From assembly GCA_030621515.1 (NCBI GenBank), contig JAUXHN010000005.1, positions 1 to 53,167 of the forward strand: 53,167 nt of DNA, read 5' to 3'. This stretch comes from Deltaproteobacteria bacterium. GTDB taxonomy: Bacteria; Myxococcota_A; Polyangia; JAAYKL01. Made by a program: the position numbers and the translations under genes. Below, in pieces: positions 601 through 46,331 of this stretch; position 1 is the first letter of the stretch; every line of letters begins with the position of its first letter. The notes below the pieces were generated by a model. That model did no database searches and was not told the origin of the DNA. It saw nothing but the letters and a program-made list of their open reading frames with translations.

Positions 601-1518
601 TCACGGACAGCTCGCAGGAACCGGCGTGCATGTGTCGTCGAGGTTGTCCCAGGCGCTTATTGATGGCCAGTTTGTGAATTGTTCTATCAAGTCGCAAATC
701 TCACAACCGGCAAGTTGTGGGTTTTCAAAGATCCACACATCATCCTCAACCAATGTGAGACCGCTCAGCCCATCCAGGCTGGTGAGGGTGTCGTTGTAAA
801 CGATGTGCAAGTCCCCACCCAGCGAGCCGGTGATCCCGCTCAGGCCATCCAGGTTTGTGAGGGCGTCGTTGTCGTCAACAAGCAAGTTCTCGCCCACCGA
901 TGTGAGACCGCTCAGACCGTTCAGGCTGGTGAGGGCGTCGTTGGATTCGATCAACAAGTACCCATCCACCGAAGTCAGCGCGCTAAGGCCATCCAGGTTG
1001 GTCAGTGCGTCGTTGTAGGTGATATACAAGTCCCCACCCACTGCGCCGGTGATCCCGCTCAGGCCGTCTAAGTTAGTGAGGGCGTCGTTGGAGTCGATCC
1101 ACAAGTACTCACCCACCGAGGTGATGCCGCTCAGTCCGTCCAAGTTGGTGAGGGCGGTGTTGCTGCGGATGAGCAGCCACCCGCCCACCGAGGTCAGGCA
1201 AATCAACTCGCTCAAGTCGGTGCACGAAACGCAGCCATGGATATTCAGGTCTCCAGAGATAGAAGTGTATCCCGCGAGGGCTGCAACATCCGATTGTGTG
1301 TTGATAGTGAAATAGCCGGTGTACTCCCCCTGAGTGCAGTCGGGGCTGGTGTCCGTGTCGGTAGCGGAATCTGAGTCGGTGTCCGTGTCGGTGTCTGTAT
1401 CAGAGTCGGTATCGGTATCGGTGTCCGTGCCGGTTCCACTGTCTCCGATGGATGAAACATGCGAGCACCCGCCACAAACCAGCACGGTCGCAAGCAACAT
1501 CAACAGCAAGTACTTCAT
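601..1518 (-). CDS. LRR-type lipoprotein with Asp-Thr linker (intact paralogue)
   Basis: Predicted surface lipoprotein of 305 aa. It has a signal peptide with lipobox VCGGC (Cys18), then a low-complexity linker of D-T and D-S dipeptides (about residues 28-58). A Cys-flanked cap follows, then about six units of ~24 residues built on the pattern ND-ALTNLDGLSGITSVGG-LWI, the curved or solenoid repeat seen in receptor-L and LRR surface proteins. The C-terminus carries paired cysteines (CEIC and the terminal SCP), suggesting a disulfide-closed cap. A purine-rich SD (GGGGGA) precedes the ATG. The gene is flanked by a truncated copy (90-536) and a third remnant (1584-1679), so the locus expanded by tandem duplication. 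Ligand and role are unknown. Residue +2 after the lipid Cys is Ser, compatible with outer-membrane sorting. Confidence 0.85.
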   Translation of the reverse strand: MKYLLLMLLATVLVCGGCSHVSSIGDSGTGTDTDTDTDSDTDTDTDTDSDSATDTDTSPDCTQGEYTGYFTINTQSDVAALAGYTSISGDLNIHGCVSCTDLSELICLTSVGGWLLIRSNTALTNLDGLSGITSVGEYLWIDSNDALTNLDGLSGITGAVGGDLYITYNDALTNLDGLSALTSVDGYLLIESNDALTSLNGLSGLTSVGENLLVDDNDALTNLDGLSGITGSLGGDLHIVYNDTLTSLDGLSGLTLVEDDVWIFENPQLAGCEICDLIEQFTNWPSISAWDNLDDTCTPVPASCP

Positions 1519-10277: not shown

Positions 10278-10706
10278 ATGAAAATGTGCAGGACACTGAT
10301 TGTTTCGTTGTTGGCGTTTGCCCTGGGGGCATTCACTTTCGGTTGCGGCAGTGATGACAGCCGTGGATCGGGAGATTCCGATTCGGACAGCGACAGCGAT
10401 GGTGACAGCGATACCGATGCCGACACGGATTCTGATTCTGATTCAGACACAGACACGGACACGGACACCGACACCGATACGGACACGGACACGGATTCAG
10501 ACACAGACACAGATACCGACACCGATACGAACACCGATACGGACACAGACACGGGTACCGGTACTGATACCGGCACCGGGTCGGATCCTTGCCCTCCGAC
10601 TGCCCCGACACCGGGAGATCCGTGCTCGCCTCTCGGATTGAGCTGCTCCTACATGCCCCTGACGGTCTGCGTGTGTGAGGCCTCCGGCTGGATTTGCGCC
10701 TACTAG
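10278..10706 (+). CDS. Lipoprotein with very long Asp-Thr/Asp-Ser linker and short Cys-rich end
   Basis: 142-aa predicted surface lipoprotein. The signal peptide ends FGCGS (lipobox Cys about residue 23). Almost 70 residues of D-S, D-T and a few G-T dipeptides follow, the longest such linker in the window. The end is a small domain, DPCPPTAPTPGDPCSPLG through VCVCEASGWICAY, with six cysteines. GGGGAGGAA supports the ATG at 10278. The terminal domain is too small to identify and may be disulfide-bonded. The gene converges on DUF2752 with a 4-nt overlap of stop codons. The DNA of the linker uses mixed GAC/GAT and ACA/ACC/ACG codons, so the repeat is kept at protein level rather than as a perfect DNA repeat. 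Confidence 0.8.
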   Translation: MKMCRTLIVSLLAFALGAFTFGCGSDDSRGSGDSDSDSDSDGDSDTDADTDSDSDSDTDTDTDTDTDTDTDTDSDTDTDTDTDTNTDTDTDTGTGTDTGTGSDPCPPTAPTPGDPCSPLGLSCSYMPLTVCVCEASGWICAY

Positions 10707-16404: not shown

Positions 16405-17691
16405 ATGGTCAATCTCACAAGTCTTTGCATTATGTTCGTCGTATTATTTGCAGGATCGCTCGGTGGATGCGAGGGGGCCGCCCAGCGGGAGGCCTCAACC
16501 GATAGCGACACCGACTCGGACACTGATTCGGACAGTGACTCGGACAGTGACACAGACAGTGACACAGATTCCGACACGGACAGCGACACCGACACCGACA
16601 CGGGCATTGTGGATCTATCGTACATCTGGATTGCCAATACGGACGATGGGACCCTGTCCAAGGTCGACACGCAAACTGCGGTGGAGGTGGCGCGCTATCG
16701 AACGTGCCCGCTAAGCTTCTGTGATCCGTCGCGCACATCGGTCAATCTGCACGGGGACGCGGTCGTCACCAACCGCCAGTCGTTTCCGTCCTCGGTGACC
16801 AAGTTCGCCGCTGCTCAAGATGATTGCATCGACAATAACGGCAACAGTGTGATCGACACCTCCACCGGACCCGGCAACATTCTGGCCTGGGGCGAGGACG
16901 AGTGCATGATCTGGCACTCCGAGCTCCCGACGACGGGATTCGTCAGCGAGCACGGGGCCCGGGCTACCGCCTGGGACGGCCAGACGGACCCGGACACCGG
17001 CGAAGGGGGGCATGTATGGGTGGGAACTTGCAGCTTAGAGATGATGGGCCAACAAACGATCTTCAAGCTCGACGGTGATACCGGCGACATCGTGGATTCG
17101 GTGGCCGTCTCTTCGATGTGTGCATACGGCGGCGTCGTGGACGGCAACGGCGGGTTCTGGATTCTGAGTGGTTACGGCATGGTCGAAGAGTTGTTGCGCG
17201 TGGACATGGCTACGCTCACCGCAAACTCTCGCATTCTGCAGTGTGGCTATGGCATCACCGTGGACTCTTCCGGCCGCATCTGGGCCGGCGGTATGGGCAT
17301 GATGATGGGCAGCTGCATCTCGCGCTACGATCCGGCCACCGATACCGAACTGACCGTGGACGTCCCCGGCGCCGAGTTCCTGCGCGGGATTGCCGTGGGG
17401 GTGGAGCTGAGCGCGGGCTACGTCTGGGCTGCGGACACCAGCGGGAGGCTGTACAAGATCGCCGAAGATTCGATGATCGTCGAGAACACCTACAACGTTG
17501 GCGCCTACAACATGATTGGCGTGGCCGTGGATTTCGAGGGCTATATCTGGACCGTCTCGCAGGAGGGCAACGCAACGTACAAGTTCGACCCGTCATCGGA
17601 AACACAAGTCGCGGTCCCCATCGGCCAGGGGCCGTACACCTACAGCGACATGACCGGAGTACAACTCAGCAGCGTGATCATTATCGAGTAG
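16405..17691 (+). CDS. Lipoprotein with Asp-Ser/Asp-Thr linker and beta-propeller domain
   Basis: 428-aa predicted surface lipoprotein. The signal peptide ends GSLGGC (lipobox), then about 36 residues of D-S-D-T repeats. The large C-terminal domain has propeller-blade motifs such as YIWIANTDDGTLSKVDTQT, VWVGT, GFWILSG, RIWAGG, YVWAADTSGRLYKI and YIWTVSQ, typical of NHL/SMP-30/Vgb-like six-bladed folds. The start at 16405 is preferred over ATG 16375 because GGAGG lies five bases upstream. DDCIDNNGNSVIDT is a short Asp/Asn Ca-binding-like loop. No catalytic residues are evident; it may bind a surface ligand or another protein. Confidence 0.82.
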   Translation: MVNLTSLCIMFVVLFAGSLGGCEGAAQREASTDSDTDSDTDSDSDSDSDTDSDTDSDTDSDTDTDTGIVDLSYIWIANTDDGTLSKVDTQTAVEVARYRTCPLSFCDPSRTSVNLHGDAVVTNRQSFPSSVTKFAAAQDDCIDNNGNSVIDTSTGPGNILAWGEDECMIWHSELPTTGFVSEHGARATAWDGQTDPDTGEGGHVWVGTCSLEMMGQQTIFKLDGDTGDIVDSVAVSSMCAYGGVVDGNGGFWILSGYGMVEELLRVDMATLTANSRILQCGYGITVDSSGRIWAGGMGMMMGSCISRYDPATDTELTVDVPGAEFLRGIAVGVELSAGYVWAADTSGRLYKIAEDSMIVENTYNVGAYNMIGVAVDFEGYIWTVSQEGNATYKFDPSSETQVAVPIGQGPYTYSDMTGVQLSSVIIIE

Positions 17692-37718: not shown

Positions 37719-38261
37719 CTAGTAGAACTTCATGCCGATGGTGAAGCCGATGGCCACCACGTCCTCGATGTTGTCCAGAAGGAAGTAGTCCCCTTCCACG
37801 GCAATATCGATGGCCCAGTTTGAGTTGACGAAGAACTCGTAGCCCACGCCGAGGGACGCATCCAGACCAAGGGTCAGGTCCTTGCCCATGACGTCCTCCT
37901 CGGGGAACATGAAGGCGAGCCCCCCGGCGAGCCGCATGAAGATGGCGTCGCTCAGGAAGAAATTGAACTCGGGTCCGGGCACCAGGTACCAGTTGGAATT
38001 CCCGTCGACGAGCTGGAACCTGACATCCAGGTCCAGGGCGAAGGTGACCCGCTTGTTGGGGGCGCCCCCGATCTGGACATCCAGCAGCATGTCGCCGCCC
38101 ACCTTGTCATTTTGAATTGCGGCGCCGCCGCCGATCCCGATCCCCGCGAACATCCCCCGTCGATCCTGGTAGCCGTCCAGGGCAGACGCATCGGCTGCGA
38201 CGAAGAGCGAGAATGCCGCGACCGCAAATGCAACGCACTTTACGATAAGTATTTTTTTCAT
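37719..38261 (-). CDS. Small outer-membrane beta-barrel protein
   Basis: 180-aa protein with a cleavable signal (MKKILIVKCVAFAVAAFSLFVAADASA). Eight or so amphipathic strands follow: MFAGIGIGGGAAI, MLLDVQIGGA, VTFALDLDVRFQLV, WYLVPGPEFNFFLS, IFMRLAGGLAFMF, LTLGLDASLGVGYEFFV, WAIDIAVEGDYFLL, VAIGFTIGMKFY. The terminal Tyr is a BAM signal. The size fits an eight-stranded OmpA/OmpX-like barrel. ATG 38261 has GGAGGAAC upstream. The left 37-bp direct repeat lies 22 bp upstream. Confidence 0.8.
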   Translation of the reverse strand: MKKILIVKCVAFAVAAFSLFVAADASALDGYQDRRGMFAGIGIGGGAAIQNDKVGGDMLLDVQIGGAPNKRVTFALDLDVRFQLVDGNSNWYLVPGPEFNFFLSDAIFMRLAGGLAFMFPEEDVMGKDLTLGLDASLGVGYEFFVNSNWAIDIAVEGDYFLLDNIEDVVAIGFTIGMKFY

Positions 38262-38283: not shown

Positions 38284-38320
38284 TAACGCATGGACGCGAC
38301 CGATACGACGGAAAATCCGC
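38284..38320. repeat. 37-bp direct repeat, left copy
   Basis: Exactly identical over 37 bp to 40638-40674, where the sequence is the 3' end of the COG3014-like gene. Here it could encode the same last residues (GFSVVSVASMR) followed by TAA, but a stop lies nine codons upstream in frame, so it is only a fragment of a gene end. The two copies bound a segment of about 2.3 kb. Confidence 0.9.
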
Positions 38321-38334
38321 ACCGGTTGCGGATT
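38314..38334 (-). terminator. Probable terminator after the FGE-like gene
   Basis: A perfect 8-bp stem (AATCCGCA/TGCGGATT, 5-nt loop) lies 33 nt past the FGE-like stop codon on the minus strand and runs into TTTTCC. The downstream arm is formed by the end of the left 37-bp repeat, so the hairpin straddles the repeat boundary and does not exist at the right copy. Confidence 0.5.
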
Positions 38335-38367
38335 ACGATTTAGTGGTTTGAAGGGCGCGAAGACCGC

Positions 38368-39480
38368 TCACTTCCCGGCATCGACTCCCGCGTCGGGTTG
38401 AGGTGGGGGATTCAGGGTTCGAACCAGACGGAAACCGCTATTAAGGAGTCTGGTATCGAAGTCACGACCGTGATGGTCAGCGGCACGACAATAGCAGGCT
38501 TCGGCGAAACCCCCACCCCCTTTGATTGAACGCCGATCATCTTGTTCATTAGGCGCGCCAATGGGATCGATGAGTGGACCTTCAATACCTGCATTTTCCG
38601 ACATACTAAAACCTGTGTATACGTAATCGATCCATTCCCGGACATTGCCGAGCATATCATATAGACCCCAACCGTTGGCTTGCTTGCCGCATACCGGGTG
38701 CAATGCGTCGCCGGAGTTATTGCAATACCAAGCGATGGGCTCGGCAACCGGATCTTCCTGACAGCCATTGCTGTCCGTGGTCACATCGCCGTTGTAGGTA
38801 GATGTGGTGGTACCGGCCCGAGCCGCATACTCCCACTCGGCGCTCGTAGGCAATCTATATCCCGGGCATTCGTACCAATTGGCATATAGGTGCGGATCGC
38901 CTGTGCAGATGTATGTGTCAATAAAATTGGCGGCGCTGCAAACCTCCCATTCTATGGGGCACCCACTTCCAATGGTGCCCTGGCAATCCGTGAGGTCATA
39001 GCAAGAATCCAGGCCTTCGGCGACAGACAGCGTATTGGCGTAAGCGGCTGCCTCCAGCCAGTTTATAAATACGACAGGCTTTTGAGGCCCCAGGTCTCGT
39101 GACGGATTCAGAAAACCCGCTGCCTCCCATTCGGACTGGGTGACTTCGCTTTGGGCCATGAGAAACGTTCTTGTAAGCGTCACTTGCACCTGATTTTCAG
39201 AATTTGCGCCTCGACAGGGCTCGGTAATCGGGGACCCGAGAATGAAACAACCCGGCTCAATCTCGCACCATCCGCCAGTACAGTTCACAACCGCCTGGGG
39301 TTGTGTGCAGTCGGTGTCCGTATCTGTGTCCGTGTCGGTATCGTTGTCGGTGTCAGTGTCGGTGTCTGTATCGGTGTCGGTATCTGTATCAGACCCCGAA
39401 TCCGGGCTACTCCCGCTGTTGTTCGAACAACTGGGGCAGACCATGAGGATGGAGAGTACAAAAAGAAGTGTTAATCGCAT
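38368..39480 (-). CDS. Lipoprotein with Asp-Thr linker and formylglycine-generating-enzyme-like domain
   Basis: 370-aa predicted surface lipoprotein. ATG 39480 gives MRLTLLFVLSILMVCPSC (lipobox Cys18), then about 28 residues of D-T repeats. The rest is an FGE/SUMF1-like fold: GCFILGSPITEPCRG, FLMAQSEVTQSEWEAAG, PVVFINWLEAAAYANTLS, YRLPTSAEWEYAARAGTT, WGLYDMLGNVREWIDYVY, SIKGGGGF and NSGFRLVRTL. True FGE uses two Cys to oxidise sulfatase Cys; here Cys residues are many, but the active pair cannot be assigned by eye. Most bacterial paralogues bind ligands or modify other targets. No sulfatase is present. It lies in the direct-repeat-bounded segment. Confidence 0.85.
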   Translation of the reverse strand: MRLTLLFVLSILMVCPSCSNNSGSSPDSGSDTDTDTDTDTDTDTDNDTDTDTDTDTDCTQPQAVVNCTGGWCEIEPGCFILGSPITEPCRGANSENQVQVTLTRTFLMAQSEVTQSEWEAAGFLNPSRDLGPQKPVVFINWLEAAAYANTLSVAEGLDSCYDLTDCQGTIGSGCPIEWEVCSAANFIDTYICTGDPHLYANWYECPGYRLPTSAEWEYAARAGTTTSTYNGDVTTDSNGCQEDPVAEPIAWYCNNSGDALHPVCGKQANGWGLYDMLGNVREWIDYVYTGFSMSENAGIEGPLIDPIGAPNEQDDRRSIKGGGGFAEACYCRAADHHGRDFDTRLLNSGFRLVRTLNPPPQPDAGVDAGK

Positions 39481-39552
39481 TGATTGCCCCGCGCCTGTGC
39501 TTTCACCGATAATACCACACGGTCCTTCCCGGCGTTTTGAAATTCGTTCCCA

Positions 39553-39762
39553 GGGGGTACGGAAGGCGTCTGAAAATCCCCCAGGCATGCCGGAGACGGT
39601 CCGGGAAGCGGTCGGGGAATCTTCAGGAGTCCGAGGGAGGGTCCGGAAAGCGGTCGGGGAATCTCCAGGCGCCCGAGGGAGGGTCCGGAAAGCGGTCGGG
39701 GATTCCCCGGGTGGTAGAGGGAGGGTCCGGAAGGCGCTTGGGGATTCCCCAAACGAGCAACG
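39553..39762. repeat. Five tandem 42-bp repeats (minisatellite)
   Basis: Five units of exactly 42 bp: 39553-39594, 39595-39636, 39637-39678, 39679-39720, 39721-39762. The core GGTCCGGAAAGCGGTCGGGGA is conserved and the second half varies. Units 4 and 5 centre on palindromes, CGGGGATTCCCCG (39697-39709) and TTGGGGATTCCCCAA (39738-39752), with paired changes on both arms. The array fills most of the 318 bp between the FGE-like gene and the 247-aa gene. It is open in several frames because 42 is a multiple of three, but none of those frames has a credible start and SD. Confidence 0.9.
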
Positions 39763-39798
39763 GCGCGGGTTTCCGGTGTTTTAATTGCGGGGGACGAA

Positions 39799-40542
39799 CT
39801 ATTCCGAACCGAAGCCCAAAGAAGCCGTGTCTTGGGCCACTTCGGCGGTCTGACCTGCCCGGCGCGCGGACGGCCTGACTCTTTTCGCAAGCTCTTTCTC
39901 GCCTGCTATCCGGAGCAGGACGCTCGTCAGGTTGGCGGCGCTGGAAAAGGCGCTGTCGTACTCATCGATTGCCTTGTGCTTGGCCATCAGGGTGGCCTCC
40001 GCCTGGCGCTGTTCCTCGGCTATCTTTGCGACCGATTCATCGAGGTCGTCCAGCAGCGCGACTATCGGCTTGCGCCACAGGTTGGGATCGAACTTGTATC
40101 CAGGGATCCTGGGCTCCGGCGGCTTTATCTCGATCAGATTGGCGGACACGGTCTTGCCGAGCCTGTGCAGCACGACCGGATCGTCCGGCGTAGGCCCATC
40201 GAACCCAAGCCGGGCGACATACTCCGGCCCGCAGATGGTATCGAGCTGGTCCCTGCCGGTGACGAGGCAGTCGTGCAGCTCATCGGTTTTAGTGTCCCTC
40301 TGTTTGCGAGCGGCCGGATCGTCGCGCAGTTCGTTTTCGTGCTCGTCGTCCTTGATGACCATGATATCGGCTTTTGCGGACAGATCTGCGGCTACCCTCT
40401 CCAACACCAACTTCACCGCCGGGATTACTTCCTCTCCATATTTCTTTCCCATTTCCTCGGCGATCGTCCCCGTGTGAGTTTCAACGGCGGCCGTTACCTT
40501 CCCTGAGGATTTCTGTCTCTGAACAGTTGATTTTGATGCCAT
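39799..40542 (-). CDS. Hypothetical protein, 247 aa, soluble and helical
   Basis: I do not recognise this protein. It has no signal peptide or TM segment. The sequence is mostly charged helices: residues 30-95 (EEMGKKYGEEVIPAVKLVL, VAADLSAKADI) and 155-235 (LLDDLDESVAKIAEEQRQAEATL, ELAKRVRPSARRAGQTAEVA). A Pro-rich hinge lies between (PPEPRIPGYKFDPNLWRKPI). CGGAGGGGAAAA precedes ATG 40542, a strong SD, so it is probably expressed. It lies inside the segment bounded by the 37-bp repeats, next to the 42-bp array and upstream of the FGE-like lipoprotein, yet unlike its neighbours it is cytoplasmic. Confidence 0.7.
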   Translation of the reverse strand: MASKSTVQRQKSSGKVTAAVETHTGTIAEEMGKKYGEEVIPAVKLVLERVAADLSAKADIMVIKDDEHENELRDDPAARKQRDTKTDELHDCLVTGRDQLDTICGPEYVARLGFDGPTPDDPVVLHRLGKTVSANLIEIKPPEPRIPGYKFDPNLWRKPIVALLDDLDESVAKIAEEQRQAEATLMAKHKAIDEYDSAFSSAANLTSVLLRIAGEKELAKRVRPSARRAGQTAEVAQDTASLGFGSE

Positions 40543-40636
40543 TTTTCCCCTCCGTTTTCCGGCTGTTTGTATCAGTTGTAAATGTGGCGAATCGTTTAAC
40601 GCTATCGAACAAGGCTGTCAATCGACATCCTTATTA

Positions 40637-42046
40637 CTAACGCATGGACGCGACCGATACGACGGAAAATCCGCCGGGGGGTACGTTGACCGTCTTGTCG
40701 ACCTGTTTCGAACCGGCCTGGCCGGAGAAGGCTACGGATACCTTGTGCTTTCCGGCCCGGACTTCCTTCCTGGACACCAGGATCATCGATGGGAGCGTCA
40801 CCCAGGACCGGGTGTCGGGAGTGTCTGCGGCGGTCATGGCGCCCTCGACGGCAAACTGGGCAAGCAGGGCCAGTCCGCTTGCGGCGCCACCCGCTTTTGC
40901 CCCCTGGTTGGCCGCCTCACCGACCACCGCGCGGGTGATCATCCGGGTGATGGCTGCCACCATGAGGGTTCCCTTGATTCGATCCCAGGCGTCGATCACC
41001 AGTTCTGTGACGTTCTCGCCCAGCTCCGCCGCGACGGGTTCGCCATCCACCGTCACCCGGGCACGCTTGAATCTCGGGCGGGTCTTCTTCATCACCGGGA
41101 ACATGACCCACTTGAGAAGCCCCTTGGCGGACAGCTCGTTCGCCCTGCTCGAGTTGCCGGAGCTCAAACCCGGGCCGTACATCACGTGAGCGGCGATCAC
41201 CAGCGCCGCGCCTATCGGGATTCTCCGGGCCTGCTTGTGGGGCGCAAGGCCCACGGATGTCACCACCAGGATCGTGCCCGTCTTATTGGAAGTCTTCTCG
41301 CAAAGGGGTCCCTGAGATCCTTCCTCCACAACTTCCAGCAGCTTCTCGATCCGGTCCGTCCGGTAGGTGTCGCATGCCGCGAGCCGCCGTATCGGGGCGA
41401 TGAGGGATGGATGGTCACCCGCCTCGAGCGCGCTGTCGTAATGGCCGAGAGCTTGCTCTCTTCGGCCGGACATCTCGAAGGTGAAGCCCGCCAGGTATTC
41501 GCCAAGGCCGAGTCCGGCCTCGTCGGGAGAGACCTGGTCCTTCAGATAATCCTGCATGATCGTGAACCGGCGCGCCTCGACGCGGGCGCTCTCCAGATCG
41601 CCGATGGAGAGATAGTTGAGCATATTGAGCGTGTTGAGCAGGAGCTTCTCGTGAGGGGGCGCCTTGTACACGGTGGAGTCGTCGGAGAAGAGCCACTTGC
41701 CGATGTTTCCGGCGGTGTCGTTCTTGATGTCCAGCATCTCCAGGTGCTTGTCGGAGATTCGCAAATCGAGGGTCGACGACTTGTAGCGACCGAGCCCCTG
41801 CTTGATGGTGCCGCGCTCCAGAACCAGGAGGGCGTTCTCGCCATCCAGCTCGATGGGGTAGTGGTCGGATTCCTCCACCTCCAGGGCCTTGTTCGCCATG
41901 TGAAGAGCGCGAAGCTCGTTTCCGGCCAGCAGGGAGGAGCGGATCTCCTTGACGTCACCCTCGTATCCCGCGCAGGCGCCGGAGGCGAGTGCAATCAAGA
42001 CCGCAGCTGAGCTGCAGATTATGCCCGGGCGAATCCTCAACGACAT
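40637..42046 (-). CDS. COG3014-like TPR lipoprotein
   Basis: 469-aa predicted outer-membrane lipoprotein. The signal ends ALASGACAG (lipobox GAC). The N-terminal half is TPR-like (RSSLLAGNELRALHMANKALE, LLLNTLNMLNYLSIGDLESARVEARRF, EMSGRREQALGHYDSALEAG). It then has ILVVTSVGLAPHKQARRIPIG and a C-terminal region ending with beta-strands (LPSMILVSRKEVRAGKHKVSVAF). This arrangement matches the COG3014 proteins found beside LpoB/CsgG-like lipoproteins. It starts 2 nt after the LpoB-like gene and is surely co-transcribed. The last 37 bp form the right copy of the direct repeat. Confidence 0.8.
   Translation of the reverse strand: MSLRIRPGIICSSAAVLIALASGACAGYEGDVKEIRSSLLAGNELRALHMANKALEVEESDHYPIELDGENALLVLERGTIKQGLGRYKSSTLDLRISDKHLEMLDIKNDTAGNIGKWLFSDDSTVYKAPPHEKLLLNTLNMLNYLSIGDLESARVEARRFTIMQDYLKDQVSPDEAGLGLGEYLAGFTFEMSGRREQALGHYDSALEAGDHPSLIAPIRRLAACDTYRTDRIEKLLEVVEEGSQGPLCEKTSNKTGTILVVTSVGLAPHKQARRIPIGAALVIAAHVMYGPGLSSGNSSRANELSAKGLLKWVMFPVMKKTRPRFKRARVTVDGEPVAAELGENVTELVIDAWDRIKGTLMVAAITRMITRAVVGEAANQGAKAGGAASGLALLAQFAVEGAMTAADTPDTRSWVTLPSMILVSRKEVRAGKHKVSVAFSGQAGSKQVDKTVNVPPGGFSVVSVASMR
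40638..40674. repeat. 37-bp direct repeat, right copy (gene 3' end)
   Basis: Identical to 38284-38320. It covers the final eleven codons and most of the stop codon of the COG3014-like gene. Position at the 3' end of an intact gene with a detached second copy is the pattern left by site-specific insertion or by duplication followed by loss. The 94 bp between it and the 247-aa gene holds no gene. Confidence 0.9.
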
Positions 42047-45264: not shown

Positions 45265-46331
45265 ATAGAGTGGCCGTTTTGGGGCCGATGCTCGTGCTCT
45301 GCACTACCGTGGCCATTTGCGGCTGTTGGCTGGGAGGCGGTCAGAGCGGTACACCGGATGGAGGAGAGGTCGATTCCGATTCGGATAGCGATACCGATAC
45401 CGACGCCGACACCGACACGGATACCGACACGGACACAGACACCGACACCGAATTTACCTGCGAGGGCGTTCTCCACTTTCCGGACCCCAACTTCGAGCTC
45501 TCCGTGTGCTTGAGCCTGGGTATATTCGACAGCGCCACTGACACGTGCACGCAAGACATCCTAGCCGAGGACGTCGCTGAAATGACGTACTTCTCTTCCC
45601 TAGCATCGTCAGAAGGAGGCATGGTGCCGGAACACTACATAACCGATCTTACCGGATTGGAGTGCATGACGAATCTAACTACGCTGGTCATTTCTAAGAA
45701 CTACTCCCCCTTCGATCTCTCCCCACTGGCCGGCGCCGGCTCGTTGGAAGTCCTGTACGCAAGTTGGAACCAGATAGACGACCTGTCGCCACTGACCGGA
45801 CTTACCCAGCTTAACTGGCTGGAACTTCAGCACAACGAAATCTCTGACGTCTCACCGCTTTCCGGCATGAATCAACTCATCGGACTCGGGTTGAGTAACA
45901 ACTTGATCTCCGATGTATCATCGCTTTCCGGACTGTCTCAGCTCACAGTACTGATACTGGCAAACAACGAAATAATCGATGTATCGCCGTTGTCCTCCCT
46001 CGATAATTTGGACAGCCTATCCCTCATTTACAATGATATCTCGGACATCGACCCGCTAGCTTCCCTCACGGTCCTGTACAGCCTCGGTATCACTTCGAAC
46101 GATGTATCGGACATCGACGCCGTGGCTTCGATGACCGGTCTTACTATCCTCTCTTTTCAGATAAACAACATTACCGACCTTACTCCGCTGGTGAACAACG
46201 CATCTTTCGCCGACGGTTGCTCGGCTCACTTAGACTACAACCCCATCGACTGCGACGACCAGGCCGCGAACATTGCGACGTTGAAAGACAGAGGCGTACA
46301 TCTGGTCTGCGACTGTAGCGCGTGCGATTAG
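45255..46331 (+). CDS. LRR (internalin-like) lipoprotein with Asp-Thr linker
   Basis: 358-aa predicted surface lipoprotein. MAVNRVAVLGPMLVLCTTVAICGC is the signal (lipobox ICGC), then about 28 residues of D-S/D-T. A cap with cysteines (FTCEGVLHFPDPNFELSVCLS) leads to about eight 22-residue leucine-rich units such as ISDVSPLSGMNQLIGLGLSNN, the SDS22/internalin type, distinct from the LDGLSG repeats of the cluster at 90-1518. The end is a Cys-rich cap (CDDQAANI, LVCDCSACD). GAGGAGG precedes ATG 45255, which overlaps the preceding DUF4185-like gene by 10 nt, so they form a transcriptional pair. Codon use here looks less GC-biased than in the ribosomal genes. Confidence 0.88.
   Translation: MAVNRVAVLGPMLVLCTTVAICGCWLGGGQSGTPDGGEVDSDSDSDTDTDADTDTDTDTDTDTDTEFTCEGVLHFPDPNFELSVCLSLGIFDSATDTCTQDILAEDVAEMTYFSSLASSEGGMVPEHYITDLTGLECMTNLTTLVISKNYSPFDLSPLAGAGSLEVLYASWNQIDDLSPLTGLTQLNWLELQHNEISDVSPLSGMNQLIGLGLSNNLISDVSSLSGLSQLTVLILANNEIIDVSPLSSLDNLDSLSLIYNDISDIDPLASLTVLYSLGITSNDVSDIDAVASMTGLTILSFQINNITDLTPLVNNASFADGCSAHLDYNPIDCDDQAANIATLKDRGVHLVCDCSACD

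What the first reader, a model, noticed from the sequence alone, without database searches (positions are those of the whole stretch)
38284..40674. 37-bp perfect direct repeats bound a ~2.35 kb cassette at a gene 3' end
The last 37 bp of the COG3014-like gene recur exactly 2.35 kb away, just upstream of the barrel gene, as a promoterless gene-end fragment. Between the copies lie an FGE-like lipoprotein, a 42-bp minisatellite and an unknown 247-aa gene. Integration at the 3' end of a gene with regeneration of that end is a known pattern for site-specific elements, but no integrase is present. A non-autonomous mobile cassette, or a recombination scar, are both possible.
Basis: partly seen in the sequence, partly recalled or inferred. 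Interest (0 to 1): 0.65.

Follow-up and report, generated by a model that had tools for sequence, protein, structure and literature searches.

The report
Old insertion scar around swapped genes
The two identical 37-letter sequences are the scar of an old gene insertion that three related bacteria share; the genes between them were swapped later, and one of them belongs to an undescribed protein family whose copies often sit directly in front of a DNA array repeating every 41-43 bases.

Summary
Bases 38284-38320 and 40638-40674 are identical over 37 bases, the only two copies in the genome. Outside the genus the COG3014 and barrel genes lie 64-84 bp apart with no second copy, so an insertion is supported. 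The repeats do not bound a present-day 2.35-kb mobile cassette. Two congeners carry the same pair (36/37) around a 1.2-kb insert with one FGE gene and no 247-aa gene, so the scar predates the present cargo. The cargo is a mosaic: the 247-aa gene, minisatellite and FGE 5' end resemble a unit elsewhere in a congener; the FGE body comes from another paralogue clade (92% against 52-58% for the resident gene); the last ~85 nt of FGE are resident. Other copies of these genes lack comparable flanking repeats, and no recombinase is present. A by-product is more interesting: the 247-aa family is multicopy across the phylum and matches nothing in any library searched. In 31 of 81 copies it is followed directly by an array of period 41-45 bp (mostly 41-43) whose unit sequences differ between arrays, against 6 of 355 other ORF ends. 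Function unknown; a cis protein-array module is a hypothesis.

The parts
38284..38320 (-). left copy of the 37-bp repeat: displaced 3' end of COG3014 (11 codons, TAA), 22 bp before the barrel start
   Evidence: invariant in three congeners
40638..40674 (-). right copy of the 37-bp repeat: functional 3' end of COG3014
   Evidence: 36/37 identical to the left copy in both congeners
38312..38335 (-). hairpin plus T-run after the FGE stop, 3' arm inside the left repeat copy (possible terminator)
   Evidence: stem kept in congeners through a C-to-T (G-U) change; not listed by the terminator scan
38368..39588 (-). FGE-domain, lipoprotein-like gene (start perhaps at 39480), chimeric: 5' end as in G001:C458, body as in G001:C99, last ~85 nt resident
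   Evidence: (PF03781 5.5e-34)
39310..39390 (-). Asp-Thr linker (6-bp microsatellite) at which the FGE affinity switches from C458-like to C99-like
39582..39751 (-). 42-bp tandem array directly downstream of the 247-aa gene
   Evidence: in the genus it matches only beside 247-aa genes apart from one 38-bp match
39799..40542 (-). 247-aa all-helical protein, multicopy family A1, unknown function
40637..42046 (-). COG3014-like gene (469 aa), insertion target
37719..38261 (-). outer-membrane barrel-like gene, next to COG3014 in relatives
38421..40637 (-). segment not orthologous to the congeners' insert at this locus (replaced cargo)

Best explanation
The 37-bp repeats are a scar. In the common ancestor of this genus an FGE-type gene was inserted between the COG3014-like gene and the barrel gene, in a way that duplicated 34-37 bp of the COG3014 3' end. 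One copy still ends the gene; the other was displaced to the far side and now borders the barrel gene's ribosome-binding site. Later, in the lineage of the window only, the insert's content was replaced by recombination with paralogous loci. A unit of 247-aa gene, 42-bp array and FGE 5' end now follows the COG3014 stop. The FGE body was exchanged at the Asp-Thr linker and at the conserved 3' tail. Shown: repeat, shared scar, mosaic, uninterrupted junction in relatives. Inferred: order of events, homologous exchange as the mechanism for the body, and the unknown mechanism (extinct integrase or break repair) that made the original duplication.
For: Both copies are present at the same place in G001 and G002 (36/37), around a 1.2-kb insert with only an FGE gene. 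Seven other genomes of the family have a COG3014-barrel gap of 64-84 bp, and an eighth a ~30-bp gap to the next start codon at a contig end, with no second copy. Window similarity switches from resident to C458-like at 40638-40632, to C99-like near 39380, and back to resident at about 38420-38440. FGE body identity is 92% to G001:C99 but 52-58% to the congeners' resident genes, while the 22-residue tail is 91-100% identical in all. Units at the C458 and C99 loci are absent from the collinear loci of G000 and G002, so these genes change place within the genus.
Against: Only three genomes of the genus are held, all drafts. The right breakpoint coincides within 6 bp with the inner edge of the repeat, as a site-specific exchange would also give; it also coincides with the end of the coding sequence, where homology is expected to stop. 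No sequence shared by the two loci was seen at that junction, so homologous exchange is plausible only for the FGE part. An intact pre-insertion site was not seen inside the genus.
Confidence: 0.75

Rival explanations
1. Non-autonomous site-specific element: the repeats are attachment sites of an integrase supplied in trans, and the 2.35-kb segment still excises and integrates as a unit.
For: Position and anatomy fit: gene 3' end restored by one copy, original end displaced by the other, outgroups uninterrupted. The right edge of the replaced segment lies at the repeat.
Against: No recombinase in the insert. The repeats hold a different insert in both congeners. The left edge of the new segment is inside FGE, not at the repeat. 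Other copies of either gene have no comparable repeats. Only two copies of the site in the genome.
Confidence: 0.12
2. The repeat arose without an incoming element: local tandem duplication or slippage, or filler DNA at a staggered break, placed the FGE gene between the two copies. This differs from the best explanation only in how the original duplication was made.
For: No integrase in any of the three genomes' inserts; a single occurrence; the insert is a copy of a family also present at other places.
Against: The duplicated block ends at the stop codon, the classical edge of an integrase attachment site at a gene end (established knowledge).
Confidence: 0.3
3. Assembly artefact: a metagenome assembler joined paralogous FGE and 247-aa units at this place.
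For: The genome is a 346-contig draft and both gene families are repeated in the genus.
Against: The scar itself recurs in two separately assembled MAGs whose contig names carry k127 and k141, longer than the repeat. The best relatives of the cargo are only about 79-92% identical and lie in another genome; no second near-identical copy was found in the window's own genome.
Confidence: 0.06

Closest known systems
Integrative elements at the 3' end of protein-coding genes with regeneration of that end
   Same: direct repeat of the gene end on both sides, functional copy at the gene, displaced copy at the far side, uninterrupted site in relatives
   Different: no integrase, only cargo genes, cargo differs between species while the repeats stay, no second site in the genome
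Gene conversion / modular recombination between paralogous surface-protein genes
   Same: conserved 5' and 3' parts with exchanged body; breakpoints at an Asp-Thr microsatellite linker and a conserved 3' tail
   Different: no dedicated machinery or silent-cassette array found; seen from three species, not within one population
Diversity-generating retroelements (FGE/C-type-lectin-fold targets)
   Same: the variable protein carries an FGE-sulfatase domain; residues just before the conserved tail vary
   Different: the reverse transcriptases found look like group II intron maturases; variation covers the whole body, not only a short 3' stretch
REP/BIME repeats with RAYT transposases
   Same: short repeated units in intergenic arrays linked to a multicopy gene
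   Different: unit sequence differs from array to array; the protein is predicted all-helical with no consistent Pfam match and no transposase domain

Membership tests
Integrase-type integrative element at a gene 3' end | flanking direct repeat made of the gene's 3' end, one copy restoring the gene | tested here: met
Integrase-type integrative element at a gene 3' end | uninterrupted site in relatives | tested here: met
   (other genera of the family; none inside the genus)
Integrase-type integrative element at a gene 3' end | integrase or other recombinase gene in the element | tested here: not met
   only an FGE protein and the 247-aa protein (no match); congeners' insert has FGE only
Integrase-type integrative element at a gene 3' end | the same ends delimit the element wherever it occurs | tested here: not met
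Integrase-type integrative element at a gene 3' end | excised circle | not testable with these tools
   no reads
IS/transposon | terminal inverted repeats and transposase | tested here: not met
   one search shows no inverted pair at the ends; no transposase domain among the cargo
Diversity-generating retroelement | DGR-type reverse transcriptase in the genome | tested here: not met
   none in G000; those of G001 and G002 lie in ORFs that read like group II intron maturases; draft genomes; assignment by inspection
Diversity-generating retroelement | template/variable repeat pair with A-directed changes | not tested
   no candidate template was sought
Modular recombination between paralogues | body and flanks of one gene have different nearest relatives | tested here: met
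REP/RAYT | Y1 transposase beside the repeats | tested here: not met

The most novel reading that the evidence does not exclude
The 247-aa gene and the array behind it are one undescribed genetic module: a family of long-helix proteins, multicopy in many genomes of the phylum, in which each copy maintains or binds its own downstream array. The unit length is fixed at about four DNA turns (41-43 bp) while the unit sequence is free to differ from array to array. The cargo of this locus is one such module that moved in.
Probability: 0.3. Interest if true: 0.75.

Novelty: new variant of a known kind. Interest (0 to 1): 0.45.

Why it matters
The repeat shows how a gene-end scar can outlive its cargo: the same 37-bp pair now frames different genes in sister species, so flanking repeats alone do not define a mobile unit. 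The cargo exposes two things worth following: FGE-type genes that exchange their bodies between loci at a linker microsatellite and a conserved tail, and a protein family with no match in any library searched whose copies carry, directly downstream, arrays that share a period but not a sequence. A fixed period with free sequence suggests a constraint on spacing and would be an unusual mark for a protein-DNA system.

Tried and rejected
DGR origin of the FGE variation: the only reverse transcriptases found read like group II intron maturases. Mobile cassette with the repeat as its mark: no comparable flanking repeat at other FGE and 247-aa copies (L124 shows shorter exact repeats about 4.2 kb apart that span a wider segment and were not pursued). 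Exceptional conservation of the repeat: rejected; 5-10% of 37-bp windows in the flanking regions are equally invariant among the three genomes. Arrays as coding sequence: unlikely, periods of 41 and 43 occur and some units hold stops. Arrays as RNA hairpins: folding z-scores are similar on both strands (-2.2 and -2.1), G-T mismatches are not in excess of A-C (64 v 91) and palindrome enrichment is small (0.63 v 0.575). Known RNA families: none convincing. Defence families: none. Plasmid or phage origin of the 247-aa gene: no match in those collections. Fold: confident all-helical model (pLDDT 89) but no PDB or viral match at E<=0.001. Paper searches found nothing on such arrays.

Full report
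What is there. The 37-bp direct repeat is exact, at the stated coordinates, and cannot be chance. It has no third copy in the 346-contig genome. All genes in question are on the minus strand. In the direction of transcription the order is: LpoB-like gene, COG3014-like gene ending in the right copy, 247-aa gene, 42-bp array, FGE-domain gene, hairpin, left copy, barrel gene, TPR-like protein. The left copy is not part of a gene. Its first bases form the 3' arm of a hairpin with a T-run behind the FGE stop, and the stem is kept in the congeners through a C-to-T change that leaves a G-U pair. It may serve as a terminator, though the simple scan did not list it.

Relatives. The two species of the same genus held, G001 and G002 (MAGs CSMAG_220 and CSMAG_306), have COG3014 proteins 97% and 95% identical. 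Both have both repeat copies, the right one with a single difference. But there the repeats bound about 1.2 kb with one FGE gene; the 247-aa gene and the array are not at this place. In seven other genomes of the family (G004, G005, G007, G009, G010, G012, G013) COG3014 and barrel are 64-84 bp apart and nothing is inserted; in G011 the sequence after COG3014 runs into a start codon about 30 bp on, at a contig end; G006 has an unrelated 2.1-kb insert without a repeat of the gene end. The insertion with its duplication therefore most likely dates to the ancestor of the genus.

The cargo is a mosaic. In 80-bp steps the window matches the resident locus down to the COG3014 stop, then G001:C458 (247-aa gene, array, FGE 5' region), then from the Asp-Thr linker to about 38421 the FGE genes of G001:C99, C29, C260 and C497, then the resident locus again. 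On protein level the FGE body is 79-92% identical to that second group but 52-58% to the resident FGE of G001 and G002 and to C458; the tail of 22 residues is 91-100% identical in all. The exchange points are a microsatellite and a conserved tail, the places where homologous recombination between paralogues is expected; this mechanism is inferred. At the right junction no shared sequence was seen, so how the 247-aa unit entered is open.

These genes move. The collinear loci of G000 and G002 lack the units found at C458 and C99 in G001. No comparable direct repeat flanks seven other FGE copies examined outside this locus or 16 other 247-aa copies. So the 37-bp repeat is a feature of this one place, not of the cargo.

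The 247-aa family. It is multicopy: five matches in this genome, ten in G002, some of them fragments. It is present in 40 of 290 genomes of the class and 28 of 284 of the phylum sample. Contig lengths of two of these genomes (14,782,125 and 10,327,335 bases) fit, from memory, Sorangium cellulosum So0157-2 and Sandaracinus amylolyticus, so the class is probably Polyangia of the Myxococcota; no tool confirmed this. The predicted structure is all-helical (pLDDT 89) without fold match at E<=0.001. Pfam, NCBIfam, PHROGs and PADLOC give nothing consistent.

Arrays. In the first 300 bp behind the stop codon, 31 of 81 copies show strong autocorrelation (z>5), in every case at 41-45 bp or its double. 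The same test gives 0 of 85 inside the genes (any lag), 3 of 72 upstream, and 6 of 355 behind other long ORFs not near the family; the window examples among these six are hexamer microsatellites of Asp-Thr linkers. Fisher p is 9e-20; related copies are not independent, so this p value is too small. In copies from outside the class the effect is weaker, 5 of 39, and three of those 39 have a 61-bp period instead. Unit sequences differ between arrays beyond a weak AACGC-like motif. Some units contain a perfect palindrome, but overall the enrichment is small. A period near four helical turns points to double-stranded DNA rather than RNA or protein; this is inference. The most likely role, offered with low confidence, is that the protein binds its own array in cis.

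Judgement. The repeat itself is an ordinary scar with an instructive history.

Noticed in passing
window 39582-39751 and 39799-40542; L062, L063, L066, L072, L073, L075, L161-L220: 247-aa protein family with downstream arrays of period 41-45 bp (mostly 41-43) and unit sequences that differ between arrays, in 31 of 81 copies tested.
   Followed up: partly
L275, L279, L292 (other classes of the phylum): Three family members outside the class have a 61-bp instead of a 42-bp period behind the gene.
   Followed up: no
L064 (G006), between COG3014 and barrel: An unrelated 2.1-kb insert with other genes at the same junction, without repeat of the gene end: the spot seems permissive for insertions.
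   Followed up: partly
window 1348-1434, 10374-10554, 16507-16603, 45371-45451: Further 6-bp (GACACC-type) microsatellites like the Asp-Thr linker of the FGE gene; the genus has very many such linkers, possible recombination points.
   Followed up: no
window 755-1194: 72-bp tandem repeats (leucine-rich-repeat-like period) in the first kilobases of the window.
   Followed up: no
L062:4877-5653 and L241:4884-7373: At the C458 locus the first ~90 bp (signal peptide) of a barrel-like gene in G001 match the start of a TonB-receptor-like gene in G000: a breakpoint at a signal peptide, similar to the FGE exchanges.
   Followed up: no
L124 (G002:C161) around the FGE gene: Several exact repeats of 19-27 bp about 4.2 kb apart surround an FGE-type gene and its neighbours; probably a larger duplication.
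   Followed up: no
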